Source: Anaerolineales bacterium
GTDB lineage: Bacteria > Chloroflexota > Anaerolineae > Anaerolineales > Villigracilaceae
Reading direction: 5' to 3'
Assembly: GCA_014379595.1 (NCBI GenBank)
Contig: JACMLM010000016.1
Location: 1 to 64,000 of the forward strand
DNA length: 64,000 nucleotides
The translations under genes and the position numbers were made by a program. Positions 51,277 through 63,494 of this stretch are shown in pieces. How positions within the stretch are numbered: position 1 is the stretch's first letter; every line of letters starts with the position of its first letter. Under the pieces are notes generated by a model. That model saw nothing but the letters and a program-made list of their open reading frames with translations, was not told where the DNA came from and searched no databases.

Positions 51277-51313
51277 TTATTATTTCAAGAGTGTGAGTTT
51301 TCTCCTCGACTCT

Positions 51314-51355
51314 GCCTCCCCAGGTTTGGTGCTAAATCTGGGGAGGCCTTTATTT
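51314..51355 (+). terminator. Hairpin terminator
   Basis: GCCTCCCCAG and CTGGGGAGGC with a 15-nt loop, then TTTATTT. It follows the ParB-like gene. Confidence 0.85.
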
Positions 51356-51373
51356 AAAAATTATCCTCATCTA

Positions 51374-51865
51374 TCAGACAGCGGCTTGCATATTTCGTTG
51401 ACTTCGCCAGCGAAACCAGATGTATACATTTATGCCAATTGCAGCGATAAGAGCAAACATACCCAGAATGAGCGGTTCACCCCACAGGTCCAGCCAGGAA
51501 TTGATCTCTGCATTTTCAGGGTCAGCGGGGTCGTAACGTATTTCCACTTCCTTTCCAATCGGAAAGCGTGTGTACTTATTCCACCAGCGATAGTTGTTTT
51601 GGCTTCGCACGGAATACTTCTCGCCGTTTACTTTAAAGTCCACTACGGGATAAATATCGGTGAAGGATGAAGAGAGATCATCTTCCACGAAATTGGTTAC
51701 AGTGCCTGTAACTACCTCCCCGTTCGTGCTCAGTGAATAAGCATGCCAGCCTAACCAACCAGCGAACACAGCCAATAAAAACCACACTAAATTCAAGCCG
51801 AGAATCCATGCTACCTGGTTAAGGCAGCCGCCTTGAGTCTTAGTAGTATTATTCGTCTCTGTCAT
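51374..51865 (-). CDS. DUF3592 family membrane protein
   Basis: A 163-residue protein with two membrane helices (VAWILGLNLVWFLLAVFAGWLGW, PLILGMFALIAAIGINVYIWF) flanking a beta-rich domain GEVVTGTVTNFVEDD ... YPVVDFKVNGEKYSVRSQN ... IGKEVEIRYDPADPENAEI, the DUF3592 pattern. The VEIRYDPADPENAEI motif is diagnostic. Function unknown. It is convergent with the ParB-like gene and lies 69 bp from the TIR-protein gene, on the same strand. Confidence 0.88.
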   Translation of the reverse strand: MTETNNTTKTQGGCLNQVAWILGLNLVWFLLAVFAGWLGWHAYSLSTNGEVVTGTVTNFVEDDLSSSFTDIYPVVDFKVNGEKYSVRSQNNYRWWNKYTRFPIGKEVEIRYDPADPENAEINSWLDLWGEPLILGMFALIAAIGINVYIWFRWRSQRNMQAAV

Positions 51866-51934
51866 GAAATCTATCCTTAACTGCAGTCAATTTTTTATTT
51901 ACATCTCCAAATTATCGCATATATTCTGCGTGTG

Positions 51935-53770
51935 CTATTGGGACATTCGTACTGCCAGCCAACGAAAGAATAAGATAACCAGAAGCATGAGAACAATTTC
52001 GAATGTGCGAGATATATCTAAAACCTGGAAAGTAATGAGGAGAATGAAATAATAGAGCAAACTTGCCAGATGAAAGATGCTCTGAAAAATTAGTGAACGA
52101 AAATTCAAAGGAGAATAGAGTAAAAATAATCGCTCCAGACCATTCGTCGGTTTGCTTTGACGGCGCGGAAACCAGCGAGTTAACTCACGCCAGCGGATCA
52201 ACAATATCGGAAGAACGATCACAAGTGCAACTGGAAAGACAATAAATGTCATAATCGACCCGATGGCTGCCGATGTTAATAAATTAACCAGATTTTGATC
52301 TGAGCCATCGGAATAAGCAATCGTGCTGACATTTGTAAAATAGATCATCGCTTGAAATATTGTCAGAACAATCAAAGGATATAGTGCGGCTGTACCGCCA
52401 CGGCGTGAACGCAGACCTCGCAAGGAATAGAAAAGTGCAACAGCCAGGAAGATGCCATTCACACCTGCAAGAATTAACCTGAACCATTGATCCTGACCAA
52501 GGTCACCCTGCAAGACTAAGGTTACTAAGGAAATTGAAGATATCAATAATCCGCCTACACCGATAATGCCAGTGAATAAGAAAAAATATTGCAGGGCAGT
52601 AACGGCAAACGGGAAAATCTCCTGCGTGCCCGTGGGAGGAACTGCCAATGCCCTCAAGAGGCGTTCTGGTTCGGGGAGAAGTTTTGCCAGCTTATCCATA
52701 TGACGGACGCCTTGACGAAAATCAATCCATTGGATGCGTTGCAGTGCTGGCTCAATCTCATCAGCAGCTTGCAAAATGATGGGATATACGGCCTGATGAT
52801 CAGGGTCGTATTTGGTTTGTGTTTTATATGCAGAGATCAAAACAAATGATGCTTCAACCTCCTCCCCATCGAGAGCGAGGCGATGACCGTATTTTTCCAA
52901 TCCACGAGTTAAGTCTTCCGCATAAATCTCATCTTCAGCAGCATGGTCAATCGCAAACGAGATAGAACGCGGCGTTTGTATCGTTACAGCCAGTGGATGT
53001 GCAAATTGGATACGTGCGGCTTGCGGCATGGCACGGCGCTGGATGGCTGGCATAAGCAATACGATCAAAAGCAGCCAGCTTGTAAAAAATGTCGGATAAA
53101 GCAAATAACTATAAAAATTCTCAAACTCATTAAAGATGCCGCCTTGTGCAAAAAAGGTAGCAGAAAATAAAGTGAAGAAAGGTAGAAGTAAGAGCGCAGG
53201 AATGACCCGCGAGAATATGTAATTTCGTTTATAGATCTGAAACGGTAACGGCACCAAAATATAAGGAACTAGTATTGTCCACCAGGCAGGGACTGAGCCG
53301 ATCAACACCAACACACTAAGAATCAATGCCAACCAAAATGCGATACTGGCTTTAAATCCACTTTGAGGTGCAACAGACTCTACTGGGGCCTGCGGGGCAT
53401 TGAGTAAATTTTTCAGCAGCTGAAGGCTCTTCTTGTAATGGATTCGGAAGTCGATCCATTCACATGCTTGCAATTCAAGAGGCAATGGACATGCTTCAAA
53501 GATGACAAGGATGATGCGTTTCTTTAATTTCAACGCAAGCCGCCATTCAGGCTCTACATTCGTGGAAGCAATCGAGTCTTTGGATACCACCAAAAGGACA
53601 ACATCCATTTCAGCAATACCGTTTGTGATCTGCTCCATCCACGGCCTGGCCGGGACAAGACGTTGATAATCAAGCCAGAGTGGATAATCGTTATGTTCGA
53701 GATAATCAGCGAAACGATCTACAAATGGAGTTTGACGGCGTGAATAGCTGACAAAAAGTTTTTGCTTCAT
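51935..53770 (-). CDS. Membrane protein with two TIR-type domains
   Basis: A 611-residue protein from ATG 53768-53770 (AGAGG at 7-nt spacing; the longer frame would use TTG 53774-53776). Residues 1-122 are a TIR domain: FVSYSRRQTPFVDRFADYLE, YPLWLDYQRL and AEMDVVLLVVSKDSIASTNVEPEWRLAL, with E75 in the NADase glutamate position and the closing CEWIDFR. Four membrane helices (about 142-240) precede a second, shorter TIR-like module (about 270-365, ending IQWIDFR), in which the catalytic Glu region is not recognisable. Several more helices run to the C-terminus. It is divergent from an alpha/beta hydrolase gene. Confidence 0.85.
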   Translation of the reverse strand: MKQKLFVSYSRRQTPFVDRFADYLEHNDYPLWLDYQRLVPARPWMEQITNGIAEMDVVLLVVSKDSIASTNVEPEWRLALKLKKRIILVIFEACPLPLELQACEWIDFRIHYKKSLQLLKNLLNAPQAPVESVAPQSGFKASIAFWLALILSVLVLIGSVPAWWTILVPYILVPLPFQIYKRNYIFSRVIPALLLLPFFTLFSATFFAQGGIFNEFENFYSYLLYPTFFTSWLLLIVLLMPAIQRRAMPQAARIQFAHPLAVTIQTPRSISFAIDHAAEDEIYAEDLTRGLEKYGHRLALDGEEVEASFVLISAYKTQTKYDPDHQAVYPIILQAADEIEPALQRIQWIDFRQGVRHMDKLAKLLPEPERLLRALAVPPTGTQEIFPFAVTALQYFFLFTGIIGVGGLLISSISLVTLVLQGDLGQDQWFRLILAGVNGIFLAVALFYSLRGLRSRRGGTAALYPLIVLTIFQAMIYFTNVSTIAYSDGSDQNLVNLLTSAAIGSIMTFIVFPVALVIVLPILLIRWRELTRWFPRRQSKPTNGLERLFLLYSPLNFRSLIFQSIFHLASLLYYFILLITFQVLDISRTFEIVLMLLVILFFRWLAVRMSQ

Positions 53771-53893
53771 GCCCAAGCCTCTTATTTCTTTGAAGGTGAA
53801 AAGTATGAATCTGATTTTAACCCAAACCTACTTACAAGAAGCCTTAGAGTAAAATCAGATAATAGTATTGTGCATAAATTTGGAGAGAAACAA

Positions 53894-54532
53894 ATGAGTA
53901 ACGAAAAGAAAATAGATGCAATTCTTATTCACGGTATGGGACGTACACCAGTTGCCATGTCCATTTTAGCGGCGCGGCTGCAGGCATCGAATATTCGACC
54001 TCATCTTTTTGGCTATTCTGTAACATTTGAAAAATGGGATGAATGTATTCGCAGGTATGAAAACTTTATCACGAAGCGCACACAAAACAGAGATTACATT
54101 GTCGTTGGTCATTCGCTTGGAACAGTGCTAACGCGTGCGGTACTTGCGCAATTGATGCACAAGCCACTAGCCTGTTTTTTTCTTGCTCCTCCAACACAAG
54201 TAACTAAAGCGGCGCGCAATTTTGCTCATCGACATATGATCCAACTCTTCATGGGTGATATAGGCAAAGTGCTAGCGGATCAACAATTTATGGAGACCCT
54301 GCCTATGCCCAGTGTGCCGACGAAGATCTATGCTGGAGTTGCAGGTCCGCGTGGACGATACTCACCGTTTGGCGAAGAACCCAATGACGGTTTGTTAACG
54401 GTGAAAGAGACCCAACTGCCGAGTATCCCCTTGCAAACTGTGCCTTCATTACATACTTTCATTATGAATTCAAAAGTTGTGACTAAAGATATTGTGCAGA
54501 TAACAAGGTCATATTCGGCTCTACGTATTTAA
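53894..54532 (+). CDS. Alpha/beta hydrolase
   Basis: A 212-residue protein from ATG 53894 (GGAGAG upstream). The frame is open to 53762 but the added 44 codons overlap the TIR gene's promoter. The fold shows ILIHGMGRTPVAM (oxyanion loop), the nucleophile elbow VVGHSLGTVL, LACFFLAPPTQV and the C-terminal His near SLHTFIM, typical of esterases and lipases of the triacylglycerol-lipase/PGAP1-like group. Divergent with the TIR gene across a short promoter region. Substrate unknown. Confidence 0.85.
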   Translation: MSNEKKIDAILIHGMGRTPVAMSILAARLQASNIRPHLFGYSVTFEKWDECIRRYENFITKRTQNRDYIVVGHSLGTVLTRAVLAQLMHKPLACFFLAPPTQVTKAARNFAHRHMIQLFMGDIGKVLADQQFMETLPMPSVPTKIYAGVAGPRGRYSPFGEEPNDGLLTVKETQLPSIPLQTVPSLHTFIMNSKVVTKDIVQITRSYSALRI

Positions 54533-54539
54533 TATTTTA

Positions 54540-55217
54540 TTGTTCGAAGAAAGGATAGTTTGCGCGGCATATTTAGAAGTTCATGATACACGCACCGTGA
54601 TCTTTGGCGGGCAGGCAGTTCTACGCGGGCGTTGGGAAACGGCCCGTTACCTTATGCCCATGCTGACGTACTCCTCCACAATGTTGACCATCGTCACATT
54701 GGTGCACATTGACAAGTTCATCCCGGGCCTCAAACTCAATTCGTGGCTGGCATCTTACATTCTCGCGCCTATTGCGCTGAACTGGTTTTATTGGTGGCAT
54801 CAAAAAAATGGCGGCACTTGGATAATTACGGGACATGCTGTATTACCTGCCACACGCCTCCTCGCGTTGACTCTCGGTGGGCTGATGCTGACCTTTAGCC
54901 TGGTTGCGCTTCTTTTTCCTACTCTGTTTATTGCCTCTGCGCCCTGGCCGATGTCGCCACTGATCATACGTGCCTTCGCATCGATATGGGGCGCATTCAG
55001 CATGGGACCGTTATGGTTCGCCCGCGAAAAAGATTGGAATCGCCTCTACCCCGTCGCGGACATGTTGACGCTCATGCCTATTTTCTGGTTATTGATCATT
55101 GCCTTCTATCCACATGACCCAGCGATCACCATCGCAGATGTATTGCCTTTGCTAATCCTTCTGGGAATTGTGCTCATCGGCGGGATTGCTTTGCGCGGTT
55201 TACAAATGAAAAAGTAA
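54540..55217 (+). CDS. Membrane protein, unknown; TTG start
   Basis: A 225-residue protein with about six membrane helices (ASYILAPIALNWFYWW, LALTLGGLMLTFSLVALLFPTLF, FASIWGAFSMGPLWFA, TLMPIFWLLIIAFY, VLPLLILLGIVLIGGIAL). It begins with TTG 54540-54542, 7 bp after the hydrolase stop, with no clear ribosome site. The first ~40 residues are soluble and do not look like a leader, so the true start may be later or the gene truncated. The WPMSPLIIRAF-like motif recurs in Chloroflexota membrane proteins. Co-transcription with the hydrolase is likely. Confidence 0.65.
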   Translation: MFEERIVCAAYLEVHDTRTVIFGGQAVLRGRWETARYLMPMLTYSSTMLTIVTLVHIDKFIPGLKLNSWLASYILAPIALNWFYWWHQKNGGTWIITGHAVLPATRLLALTLGGLMLTFSLVALLFPTLFIASAPWPMSPLIIRAFASIWGAFSMGPLWFAREKDWNRLYPVADMLTLMPIFWLLIIAFYPHDPAITIADVLPLLILLGIVLIGGIALRGLQMKK

Positions 55218-55564
55218 ATTTGTGATCACACAACCAAAACGGACTACGATAGTTTGTACATTAACAATGGTAAAGGTTGACGATTATCGACCTTTACTTT
55301 TTGTTTACGGGGAAATGATAAATATAAATCGGCTGCTCCGCATCCCGTTATAAAAACCAAATATACATGTCGTATGCTTTGCGAGCAAAGGGCGGGCTGG
55401 GGTTATTTAAGAGATTATTTAGTTAGGCTTTGGGTTTTTTTTACAGTGTTTATGTTATGGTCAAAATGCAAGCATAGGACGAAGAGTTTCTAATAAGCAC
55501 TTTATAGTGAGCAACTCGCCGTTTAAAAATGATTTAACTGTTATTTTCTGCCCGGAGGATTATT
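55218..55564 (+). other. Spacer with a terminator and promoter region
   Basis: No gene is seen. A terminator at 55270-55302 lies early in the spacer. The rest carries the promoter of the following lipoprotein gene, and GGAGG at its 3' end. Confidence 0.5.
55270..55302 (+). terminator. Hairpin terminator
   Basis: GTAAAGGT and ACCTTTAC flank a 12-nt loop that holds the small stem CGATTATCG, followed by T5. Confidence 0.75.
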
Positions 55565-62117: not shown

Positions 62118-63494
62118 TTAGATAACCTCAAGAGGAGAATTATTTATCTTTAATTCTAATTTTCTTTTTGCTTCAATATGCCGACTATCAGATTCTGACA
62201 GTAAATTTCTCGAGGTAATACCGTTAAGCAGAGCATACAATACTTTTCCATGCATTGCAGTAAATTTAGGTGGAACTGCCTCTCCTATCATTTCGCGAAT
62301 ATTTGAGTGCCCCCATTTCTTAAGTGCATCTCCCCATTTAAATTCTTTTGGAAATGTTTGTAAATAAGCACATTCCAAAGGACTCAACACACGATTCTGA
62401 TTTGGGTGGATAGTAAAATGACTCCCGACATGGCCACTGGCCGTTGTAATTGTTGCAGCGGGAAGATTTAGATTCATTCTTCTATAACTAGATGTCTTGA
62501 AACCCTTAATTAACCTATATCTACCATTCCTTGACTTAATCACGGGGCGAGGTAATGGTCGATTACAGGATGGGCAATTTGCTCGACTCAGTACTATATC
62601 GGTTTCTCCACAATTTAAACAAGTCAAGTTTTGCCAAGCACTTGAACCATTATTTTTTGGTATTTCTGCGACCATCTCATATCTTTTAGAATCCCAAACT
62701 GGTACAAAATGAAGTCCATTTGCATAATCGCTTTTTGCTGTCTCTAAAGATTTTGCATCAAGAACTGGTAAATTAAAAGACTTAAATGCCTCACCAATGG
62801 TAATAGGGCGTTTCTTACTACCTATTGAGTGCGTAGGTTTTGGAAATGGAATAAGTTTTTTTTCATCTAAAATGTTTAAGAATTTGATGTCTTTCCTAAT
62901 AAAAGTGAAAAAAACTCTTTTCCGTGTTTGAGGAACTCCATATTCACATAAATCTATTAAGAGATAATAAGGCTTGTAGGATGACGCTAAACTAGTAGTT
63001 AACAATTCAGCCATAGTAATCGGAGTTTTAGTCTTTGGATCACGTACTAAGCGTCCGAGAAAAGCTGGAACATTCTCCACAACTATCAATTTAGGTCGTA
63101 ATTCTTTAGCAACTTCAGCAATAATTAGAGATAATAAATTCCTTGTATCTCTCATACCATGGTCAGGGTTATTTGACTTTCCTCTATCGCCTCGGGCGCT
63201 ACTAAATCCTTGGCATGGCGGACAGGCGCAGAGCAAATCAAGTTCATCACCAAAATTATCTTTATAAGTTTTGACAACATCTCTCCATGTGGTATTTAAG
63301 TCGCCCTTAACTAAATGAGCATCTGGATGATTAAGCCCGCAAACCTCTAGTCTGCGTTCATCTAGCTCTGCCATAACCTTAAAATCAAAACCCGCTAATT
63401 TATAGCCCACATCTCCCGCACCACAGTTCGAAAACAAGCTTACGGCATTTCTAACAATGCTTTTCTTAATTTTCTTTGGCTGCTTCTGCGTCAT
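62118..63494 (-). CDS. DNA (cytosine-5-)-methyltransferase with zinc-ribbon-like insert
   Basis: A 458-residue C5 methyltransferase. SAM motif LFSNCGAGDVGYKLAGF (the usual LFSGxGG), the catalytic CPPCQGFSSARG (C94), ENVPAF (140-145), QTRKRVFF (189-196) and the C-terminal LSPLECAYLQTFP. In the target-recognition region (about 285-320) is a zinc-ribbon-like C292-xx-C295 ... C307-xx-C310. The insert may affect target choice. The gene is AT-rich compared with the rest. No restriction endonuclease gene is identifiable in the window; a partial gene lies 200 bp upstream on the same strand. Confidence 0.93.
   Translation of the reverse strand: MTQKQPKKIKKSIVRNAVSLFSNCGAGDVGYKLAGFDFKVMAELDERRLEVCGLNHPDAHLVKGDLNTTWRDVVKTYKDNFGDELDLLCACPPCQGFSSARGDRGKSNNPDHGMRDTRNLLSLIIAEVAKELRPKLIVVENVPAFLGRLVRDPKTKTPITMAELLTTSLASSYKPYYLLIDLCEYGVPQTRKRVFFTFIRKDIKFLNILDEKKLIPFPKPTHSIGSKKRPITIGEAFKSFNLPVLDAKSLETAKSDYANGLHFVPVWDSKRYEMVAEIPKNNGSSAWQNLTCLNCGETDIVLSRANCPSCNRPLPRPVIKSRNGRYRLIKGFKTSSYRRMNLNLPAATITTASGHVGSHFTIHPNQNRVLSPLECAYLQTFPKEFKWGDALKKWGHSNIREMIGEAVPPKFTAMHGKVLYALLNGITSRNLLSESDSRHIEAKRKLELKINNSPLEVI

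What the first reader, a model, noticed from the sequence alone, without database searches (positions are those of the whole stretch)
51935..55217. Membrane protein with tandem TIR-type domains, divergent from an alpha/beta hydrolase
Seen: one protein carries an intact TIR domain (E75 in the NADase-glutamate position), four membrane helices, then a second TIR-like module, then more helices. Both modules close with a WIDFR motif followed by an L..LL helix, which supports a common origin. The second module lacks a recognisable catalytic Glu. Family knowledge: bacterial TIR domains are often NADases or signal producers in defence. Inference: a membrane-bound TIR sensor/effector with one active and one regulatory module. 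The alpha/beta hydrolase and a membrane protein are divergently transcribed from the adjoining spacer. This layout does not match Thoeris or other TIR systems I know.
Basis: partly seen in the sequence, partly recalled or inferred. Interest (0 to 1): 0.62.

Follow-up and report, generated by a model that had tools for sequence, protein, structure and literature searches.

The report
Membrane protein with two TIR domains
A bacterium carries a membrane protein with one complete and one stripped-down immune-type (TIR) domain; the pair is kept across its relatives, but the gene next door looks like a chance neighbour.

Summary
The gene (51935-53770, minus strand, 611 aa from its ATG) encodes TIR - 4 membrane helices - second TIR-like module - 4 helices (+2 C-terminal). 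Module 1 is a clear TIR_2 domain; its presumed catalytic Glu (E75 from the ATG) is invariant in 37 of 37 family sequences. Module 2 has a TIR fold (profile-profile E 1.4e-7; model matches a TIR structure at Z 10.2). It lacks helix alpha-B and helix alpha-C, where the Glu would sit, yet it has its own invariant residues and, in six pairs of relatives, evolves under purifying selection. Loop charges place both modules in the cytoplasm.
The family was found in one Chloroflexota genus and six other genomes of its order (18 of 301 order genomes in all, own included); searches of phage, plasmid and viral collections found none.
The suggested link to the hydrolase fails: no hydrolase beside any of 36 other family copies within the flanks held, and no TIR gene beside 11 other hydrolase loci. 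Many copies sit among housekeeping genes (acnA or lepA near 14 of 36), and 109 neighbours scanned show no recurrent defence partner.
Most likely it is a membrane-embedded TIR NAD+-cleaving enzyme regulated by a pseudo-TIR. Activity and trigger are untested. A new variant of a known kind.

The parts
51935..53770 (-). TIR-4TM-TIR*-4TM(+2) membrane protein gene, 611 aa from ATG (ORF opens at TTG 53776)
53396..53770 (-). TIR1, residues 3-127 (TTG numbering): complete TIR_2 domain
   Evidence: PF13676 E 4.8e-30; structure Z 18.8, rmsd 1.9, 122 residues against a TIR domain
53546..53548 (-). codon of the presumed catalytic Glu E77 (E75 from the ATG), 37 of 37 conserved
   Evidence: aligned to the Glu of TLR6's WCHYE
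53051..53344 (-). first membrane block, residues 145-242, TM1-TM4 (TM2 is a broken helix)
52637..52969 (-). TIR2, residues 270-380: TIR fold without helices alpha-B and alpha-C
52196..52609 (-). second membrane block, residues 390-527, TM5-TM8
51941..52102 (-). C-terminal helices 559-612 (two further TMs); low confidence part of the model
   Evidence: by length only L042 (624 aa) and L063 (610 aa) are as long, the other 34 are 522-577 aa
53894..54532 (+). alpha/beta hydrolase, 212 aa; neighbour, not judged part of the system
   Evidence: Abhydrolase_6 E 3.4e-6; no conserved linkage
54540..55217 (+). 225-aa membrane protein without Pfam match; neighbour, not judged part of the system
   Evidence: not found in the 11 other hydrolase loci held
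51374..51865 (-). DUF3592 protein, 69 bp downstream and co-directional; linkage not conserved
   Evidence: PF12158 E 1.5e-11; one weak hit among homologous loci

Best explanation
A polytopic inner-membrane TIR protein. The N-terminal cytoplasmic TIR1 is an NAD+-cleaving enzyme. The second cytoplasmic module, TIR2, is a pseudo-TIR: it keeps the TIR core sheet but has lost the BB-loop/alpha-B stretch and the alpha-C helix, so it cannot catalyse. It serves as a built-in partner that docks on TIR1 and holds or releases it. The two four-helix membrane blocks anchor the pair and probably sense a membrane or envelope event; a change there lets TIR1 domains assemble and cleave NAD+. Shown by computation: the domain order, the TIR fold of both modules, the invariant Glu, the absence of alpha-B and alpha-C in the model of TIR2, purifying selection on all four parts in relatives. 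Inferred: NADase activity, regulation by TIR2, membrane sensing, the trigger.
For: TIR1 matches TIR_2 with Glu 37 of 37. TIR2 is homologous to TIR1 and folds as a TIR, with invariant D282, A286, H298, S315, P332, Q349, W350, D352, R354 of its own. dN/dS in six pairs of relatives (the window protein not among them; dS up to 2.0) is 0.04-0.08 for TIR1 (0 in the closest pair, dS 0.01) and 0.06-0.12 for TIR2, so TIR2 is constrained, not decaying. Loops assigned inside carry 1.8-4.4 K+R per sequence, those outside 0.03-0.8, lengths not normalised, placing both TIRs in the cytoplasm where NAD+ is. Full model pLDDT 85, pTM 0.82. In one search, nine of the 50 rows, all SPARTA TIR proteins, align from TIR1 on to residue 261 or 374-377, which hints that TIR2 packs beside TIR1.
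Against: No activity was measured. The Trp of the WxxxE motif is present in only 2 of 37 members. By the passages read in PMC11374754, that Trp (W204) is essential for AbTir activity and is more strongly conserved in cyclic-ADPR-producing TIRs than in noncatalytic TIRs or those with other products, so TIR1 may make plain ADPR or be inactive; the same passage says the Trp was not required in TcpC. Of 23 other TIR_2 domains of this genome 19 keep the Glu and only 3 the Trp, so its absence does not discriminate. Docking of TIR2 on TIR1 was not inspected in coordinates. Housekeeping neighbours are not what a typical defence toxin shows. TIR2's profile found no TIR by sequence among solved structures.
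Confidence: 0.42

Rival explanations
1. A purely structural TIR scaffold: TIR1 and TIR2 assemble with other TIR proteins of this TIR-rich cell at the membrane and recruit them; no catalysis.
For: 26 TIR_2 matches over cut-off lie in the own genome, three of them family copies, so partners abound; the WxxxE Trp is missing in 35 of 37; many TIRs elsewhere are scaffolds (established knowledge).
Against: The Glu is invariant in 37 of 37 members, unexpected for a pure scaffold.
Confidence: 0.25
2. A resident physiological NAD+/membrane regulator rather than an anti-phage protein: inherited with core genes and tied to metabolism or envelope state.
For: 14 of 36 other copies lie within three genes of acnA or lepA; the closest relative is directly downstream of an nrdR-ribonucleotide reductase pair, and the window copy is 14 kb from the same pair; purifying selection; 109 neighbours show no recurrent defence family; no match in the phage and plasmid collections.
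Against: Presence is patchy: strong long matches in 17 of 37 genus genomes incl. own; tandem copies (three in G013, the third split) and broken copies (G015) suggest gain and loss as in conflict genes; acnA visible near lepA without the gene in 3 of 30 loci; another TIR protein near 3 of 36 copies.
Confidence: 0.22
3. A self-contained relay: TIR1 makes an NAD+-derived signal that TIR2 or the membrane blocks bind, opening a pore or changing membrane state.
For: Both modules appear cytoplasmic and are tethered to multi-helix blocks; TIR2 has invariant residues (D282, H298, S315) of unknown role.
Against: No ligand-binding or channel family was matched in the protein; the membrane blocks were not compared alone by fold; the Trp linked to cyclic products is mostly absent.
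Confidence: 0.08

Closest known systems
Bacterial TIR_2 (PF13676) proteins with NADase activity such as AbTir; SPARTA TIR-APAZ
   Same: TIR1 fold (Z up to 18.2 to SPARTA TIR, 15.4 to AbTir) and alpha-C Glu; SPARTA TIR is also the best structural match of TIR2
   Different: no APAZ match; eight membrane helices; second degenerate TIR in the same chain; WxxxE Trp mostly absent
Thoeris ThsB
   Same: TIR domain; weak ThsB and ThcB4 model matches over the TIR part only
   Different: 25 of 220 bits needed for the Thoeris type III model; no ThsA match in the three neighbours tested; polytopic membrane protein
TIR-STING / TIR-SAVED (CBASS effectors)
   Same: N-terminal TIR followed by another module
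   Different: no STING or SAVED domain matched; SAVED_TIR model matches the TIR part only
Animal Toll-like receptors
   Same: membrane-bound TIR; TLR6 and TLR1 are the top sequence matches of the TIR1 profile among solved structures
   Different: eight to ten membrane helices, no LRR match, two cytoplasmic TIRs (TLR anatomy: PMC7075850 passage)
Dictyostelium TirE, two diverged tandem TIR domains (PMC13142454, passages read)
   Same: two diverged TIR domains in one protein
   Different: RCC1 repeats; no multi-helix membrane blocks mentioned in the passages read; a eukaryotic protein

Membership tests
Pfam TIR_2 (PF13676) | score over the curated cut-off, TIR1 | tested here: met
   105 bits whole protein, 89.6 for TIR1 alone, cut-off 28
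Pfam TIR_2 (PF13676) | score over the curated cut-off, TIR2 alone | tested here: inconclusive
   27.9 bits against 28, 27.1 with longer ends; 36 of 37 members match at E up to 10
TIR fold | TIR topology of module 2 | tested here: met
   VIA Z 10.2, 101 residues, rmsd 2.6; 48 of 50 listed rows are TIR-containing chains; alpha-B and alpha-C absent; Foldseek lists NAD kinases from rank 8
TIR NADases | Glu in helix alpha-C | tested here: met
   E77 37 of 37, aligned with the Glu of the WxxxE position in TLR6
TIR NADases | Trp of WxxxE | tested here: not met
   Trp in 2 of 37 members, not in the window protein; role from passages of PMC11374754, where TcpC does not require it
TIR NADases | NAD+ cleavage | not testable with these tools
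   needs an enzyme assay
Thoeris | Thoeris TIR model over cut-off and adjacent ThsA | tested here: not met
   NF058526 25.4 bits of 220; the three adjacent genes give no ThsA match
SPARTA | APAZ domain and Argonaute partner | tested here: not met
   PADLOC match covers residues 4-136 only; no Argonaute match in the three adjacent genes; no other domain in Pfam
CBASS TIR-STING / TIR-SAVED | STING or SAVED domain | tested here: not met
   no such Pfam match; SAVED_TIR model matches residues 5-85 only

The most novel reading that the evidence does not exclude
A one-protein membrane TIR relay: TIR1 cleaves NAD+, and the stripped TIR2 core, which has lost catalysis but keeps invariant residues of its own, is the receptor for the product or for TIR1's state and gates the two four-helix membrane blocks. 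Enzyme, receptor and membrane effector would then lie in a single chain embedded in the core genome.
Probability: 0.08. Interest if true: 0.75.

Novelty: new variant of a known kind. Interest (0 to 1): 0.42.

Why it matters
Many studied bacterial TIR proteins are soluble enzymes switched on by partner proteins or nucleotide messengers (recalled). This family puts a complete TIR and a catalytically stripped TIR in one polytopic membrane protein, with both under selection. If the pseudo-TIR restrains or triggers the active one, it is a compact system for studying how TIR enzymes are controlled, and it would add membrane or envelope events to the stimuli that bacterial TIRs can read. Its frequent position beside acnA or lepA also asks whether TIR enzymes have roles outside phage defence.

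Tried and rejected
Hydrolase as a partner: rejected. Duplication of the whole TIR-4TM unit: not supported; the TM halves show no profile similarity (E 0.09, 15 columns), and adding them to the TIR parts does not improve the score (1.1e-7 to 1.3e-7). Wider family: class and phylum searches with the TM+TIR2 profile rang in 8 of 396 and 6 of 400 genomes, own included (overlapping sets; the six are all of the genus); the two weak class hits were read by eye as a transporter-like protein and an ordinary TIR protein with a WIDxR motif, so they are not members. The viral-contig scan (13 pattern matches, none confirmed) and phage and plasmid tblastn with residues 176-613 gave nothing. The genome-contig scan found only two relatives. 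Sequence search of TIR2 against solved structures gave no TIR hit; the fold comparison did. The viral structure library gave no match at E 0.001. Promoter scan 51300-55300: 7 sites against 7.5 in shuffles, none in the spacer. Missing Trp as a family peculiarity: rejected (of 23 non-family rows 19 have Glu, 3 have Ala at that column with a Glu four places earlier, one is cut off; 3 have the Trp). Rows dropped before counting: family fragments and split copies (for example in G015, G020, the third G013 copy) and identical sequences fetched twice; the window plus 36 distinct sequences, each covering more than 380 query residues, were kept. PADLOC and Pfam tallies of 65 window ORFs list only the first 25 families, so a weak defence gene elsewhere in the window could be hidden. 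PADLOC tally of neighbours: 109 of 110 proteins (100 aa or more, within two genes of the 36 copies, identical ones once; one family fragment left out) gave 12 families at E 1e-10; the commonest (CARF_ADA, 5 members) probably rings on the adenosine deaminase next to acnA, the others have one or two members, one of them a TIR protein. Which member gave each hit is not listed; SspH (5e-63) I suspect is an FtsK-like protein in L030 (by eye).

Literature: seven searches; none of the listed titles and abstract openings describes a prokaryotic TIR-4TM-TIR protein or this family (one search listed 20 of 84). Only that library was searched. Read: passages by term in PMC13142454, PMC7075850, PMC8195603, PMC11374754 and PMC10907252; the other papers were seen in listings only.
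Full report
What is there. On the minus strand, 51935-53776 is an open frame; the better start is the ATG at 53770 with AAGAGG seven bases upstream, giving 611 aa. Pfam finds TIR_2 at E 4.8e-30, plus three families below their cut-offs. The AlphaFold model (37-sequence alignment) has mean pLDDT 85.4 and pTM 0.82 and shows TIR1 (7-126), helices 145-167, 169-174, 177-183, 188-211 and 216-240, a second alpha/beta module (273-377), helices 390-422, 428-457, 465-488 and 502-527, and two C-terminal helices 559-582 and 588-612 in its least certain part.

Is the middle module a TIR? Four tests agree. Alone it scores TIR_2 at E 3.5e-6, just below the curated cut-off. The same module of 36 of 37 family members matches TIR_2 at E up to 10, best 1.1e-6. 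Profile-profile comparison of TIR1 and module 2 gives E 1.4e-7, probability 94. Its separate structure model (pLDDT 78, pTM 0.72) matches SPARTA's TIR at Z 10.2, rmsd 2.6 over 101 residues, and 48 of the 50 listed rows are TIR-containing chains, the other two deoxyribosyltransferases. Foldseek ranks TIR domains 1 to 7 (best E 5.9e-4, TM about 0.45-0.5), then NAD kinases. Sequence search against solved structures found no TIR.

What module 2 has lost. TIR1 has helices 46-56 and 74-83, which I name alpha-B and alpha-C. Module 2 goes from helix 37-52 (module numbering) to strand 66-71 and on to strand 87-91 with no helix between. The two hhalign gaps fall in these regions. So the Glu is not just mutated: the helix that carries it is gone. 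Module 2 keeps its own invariant residues, D282, A286, H298, S315, P332, Q349, W350, D352, R354, and dN/dS of 0.06-0.12 in six pairs of relatives, some with saturated dS. It is a constrained pseudo-TIR, not a decaying copy.

TIR1's active site. E77 is present in 37 of 37 members, as are S10, Y11, S12, R13, W34, D36, W46, S65 and S71. In the alignment to TLR6 it faces the Glu of WCHYE. The Trp four places earlier is there in only 2 of 37. [quoted passage not shown] The cautious prediction is plain NAD+ hydrolysis, if any. As a control, of 23 other TIR_2 domains of the same genome 19 keep the Glu and 3 the Trp, so the Trp's absence is not special to this family.

Topology. Across 37 sequences, mean K+R in the loops assigned inside is 1.81, 2.35, 4.19, 2.43, 3.03 and 4.41; in those assigned outside 0.03, 0.16, 0.30 and 0.78 (loop lengths differ). 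This supports four crossings between the modules and four after the second, with both TIRs in the cytoplasm. The second crossing is a broken helix, missed by a hydropathy scan, and is the least certain.

Family and distribution. In 61 related genomes, strong long matches (E below 1e-80) were found in 17 of 37 genus genomes including the own one; three more had pieces. With residues 176-613 as query, 18 of 301 genomes of the order matched, own included; six of them are outside the genus. With a TM+TIR2 profile, 8 of 396 class genomes and 6 of 400 phylum genomes matched, own included; the sets overlap, and two of the eight were read and are not members. Phage and plasmid collections and the viral-contig scan gave nothing. 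Two relatives have public names, a Chloroflexi bacterium and an Anaerolineaceae bacterium; their contig lengths equal those of G023:C14 and G036:C194, so the genus is Chloroflexota. The own genome has three family copies and 26 TIR_2 matches over the cut-off, these three included.

Neighbourhood. Of twelve window genes compared, only two had counterparts beside the other copies: the 183-aa protein (L042, 54%) and DUF3592 (L038, 30%). Flanks held for the 36 copies run to about 6 kb, but nine have about 1.5 kb or less on both sides and others end at contig ends. Homologues of the hydrolase exist in 15 of 61 genomes including the own one; 11 of those other loci were held with flanks up to 1.5 kb, and none contains the TIR gene or the 225-aa gene. 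The adjacency is best read as chance. Instead, 14 of 36 other copies have acnA or lepA within three genes (one of each confirmed by Pfam). At 3 of 30 lepA loci examined, acnA is visible within 1.5 kb and the TIR gene is not. The closest relative lies directly downstream of nrdR and a ribonucleotide reductase gene (nrdJ is my name for it); in this genome the same pair lies 14 kb away on the same strand in the same order, with an R-M pair between. A PADLOC scan of 109 neighbours gave 12 families at E 1e-10 and no recurrent defence partner (the commonest, 5 members, is probably the adenosine deaminase by acnA). On the other side, another TIR protein lies in the flanks of 3 of 36 copies (L031, L034, L038), and TPR-S and SLATT genes were found near L046 by Pfam, with relatives near L049 and L057. 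Overall the family behaves like a resident gene in core surroundings with some gain, loss and tandem duplication; a conflict role is not excluded.

Mechanism. I judge most likely a membrane-embedded TIR enzyme controlled by its own pseudo-TIR, at 0.42. Fold, order, conservation and topology are supported by computation; catalysis, control and the trigger are inferred. Rivals are a scaffold without catalysis, a physiological rather than immune role, and a self-contained relay.

Novelty. None of the papers listed in seven searches describes this architecture in prokaryotes by title or abstract opening. It is a new variant of a known kind: a TIR protein with an unusual domain order, not a new kind of system.

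Noticed in passing
62118-63494, and contig C16 63695-65764 beyond the window (L153:3696-5765): C5 cytosine methylase next to a GHKL-ATPase type II restriction enzyme (PADLOC REase_II): a restriction-modification pair between the ribonucleotide reductase gene and the TIR gene.
   Followed up: partly
G000 (own genome): 26 TIR_2 matches over the cut-off in one 4.5 Mb genome; of eight read, several are long proteins with one hydrophobic helix and at least two run into WD40-like repeats as read by eye.
   Followed up: partly
L033 3850-8898 (G013): Three family copies in tandem between acnA and lepA, the third split into two frames.
   Followed up: no
L046 6935-7405, L049 5431-5901, L057 4716-5186: A co-directional gene of about 156 aa follows the TIR gene in one sub-clade (no Pfam match in L046), with TPR-S and SLATT genes close by on the other strand.
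   Followed up: partly
L053 7117-9120 and relatives: A Band 7/SPFH protein lies by the TIR gene in five loci and within 1.5 kb upstream of lepA in 8 of 30 lepA loci.
   Followed up: no
L036 3760-5136, L041 6566-7942: The gene just before the TIR gene in these two loci looks, by eye, like an NAD(P) transhydrogenase beta subunit; an NAD-related neighbour, not tested.
   Followed up: no
window 51314-51347: A 15-pair GC-rich hairpin with a T-rich tail between two convergent genes, terminator-like.
   Followed up: no
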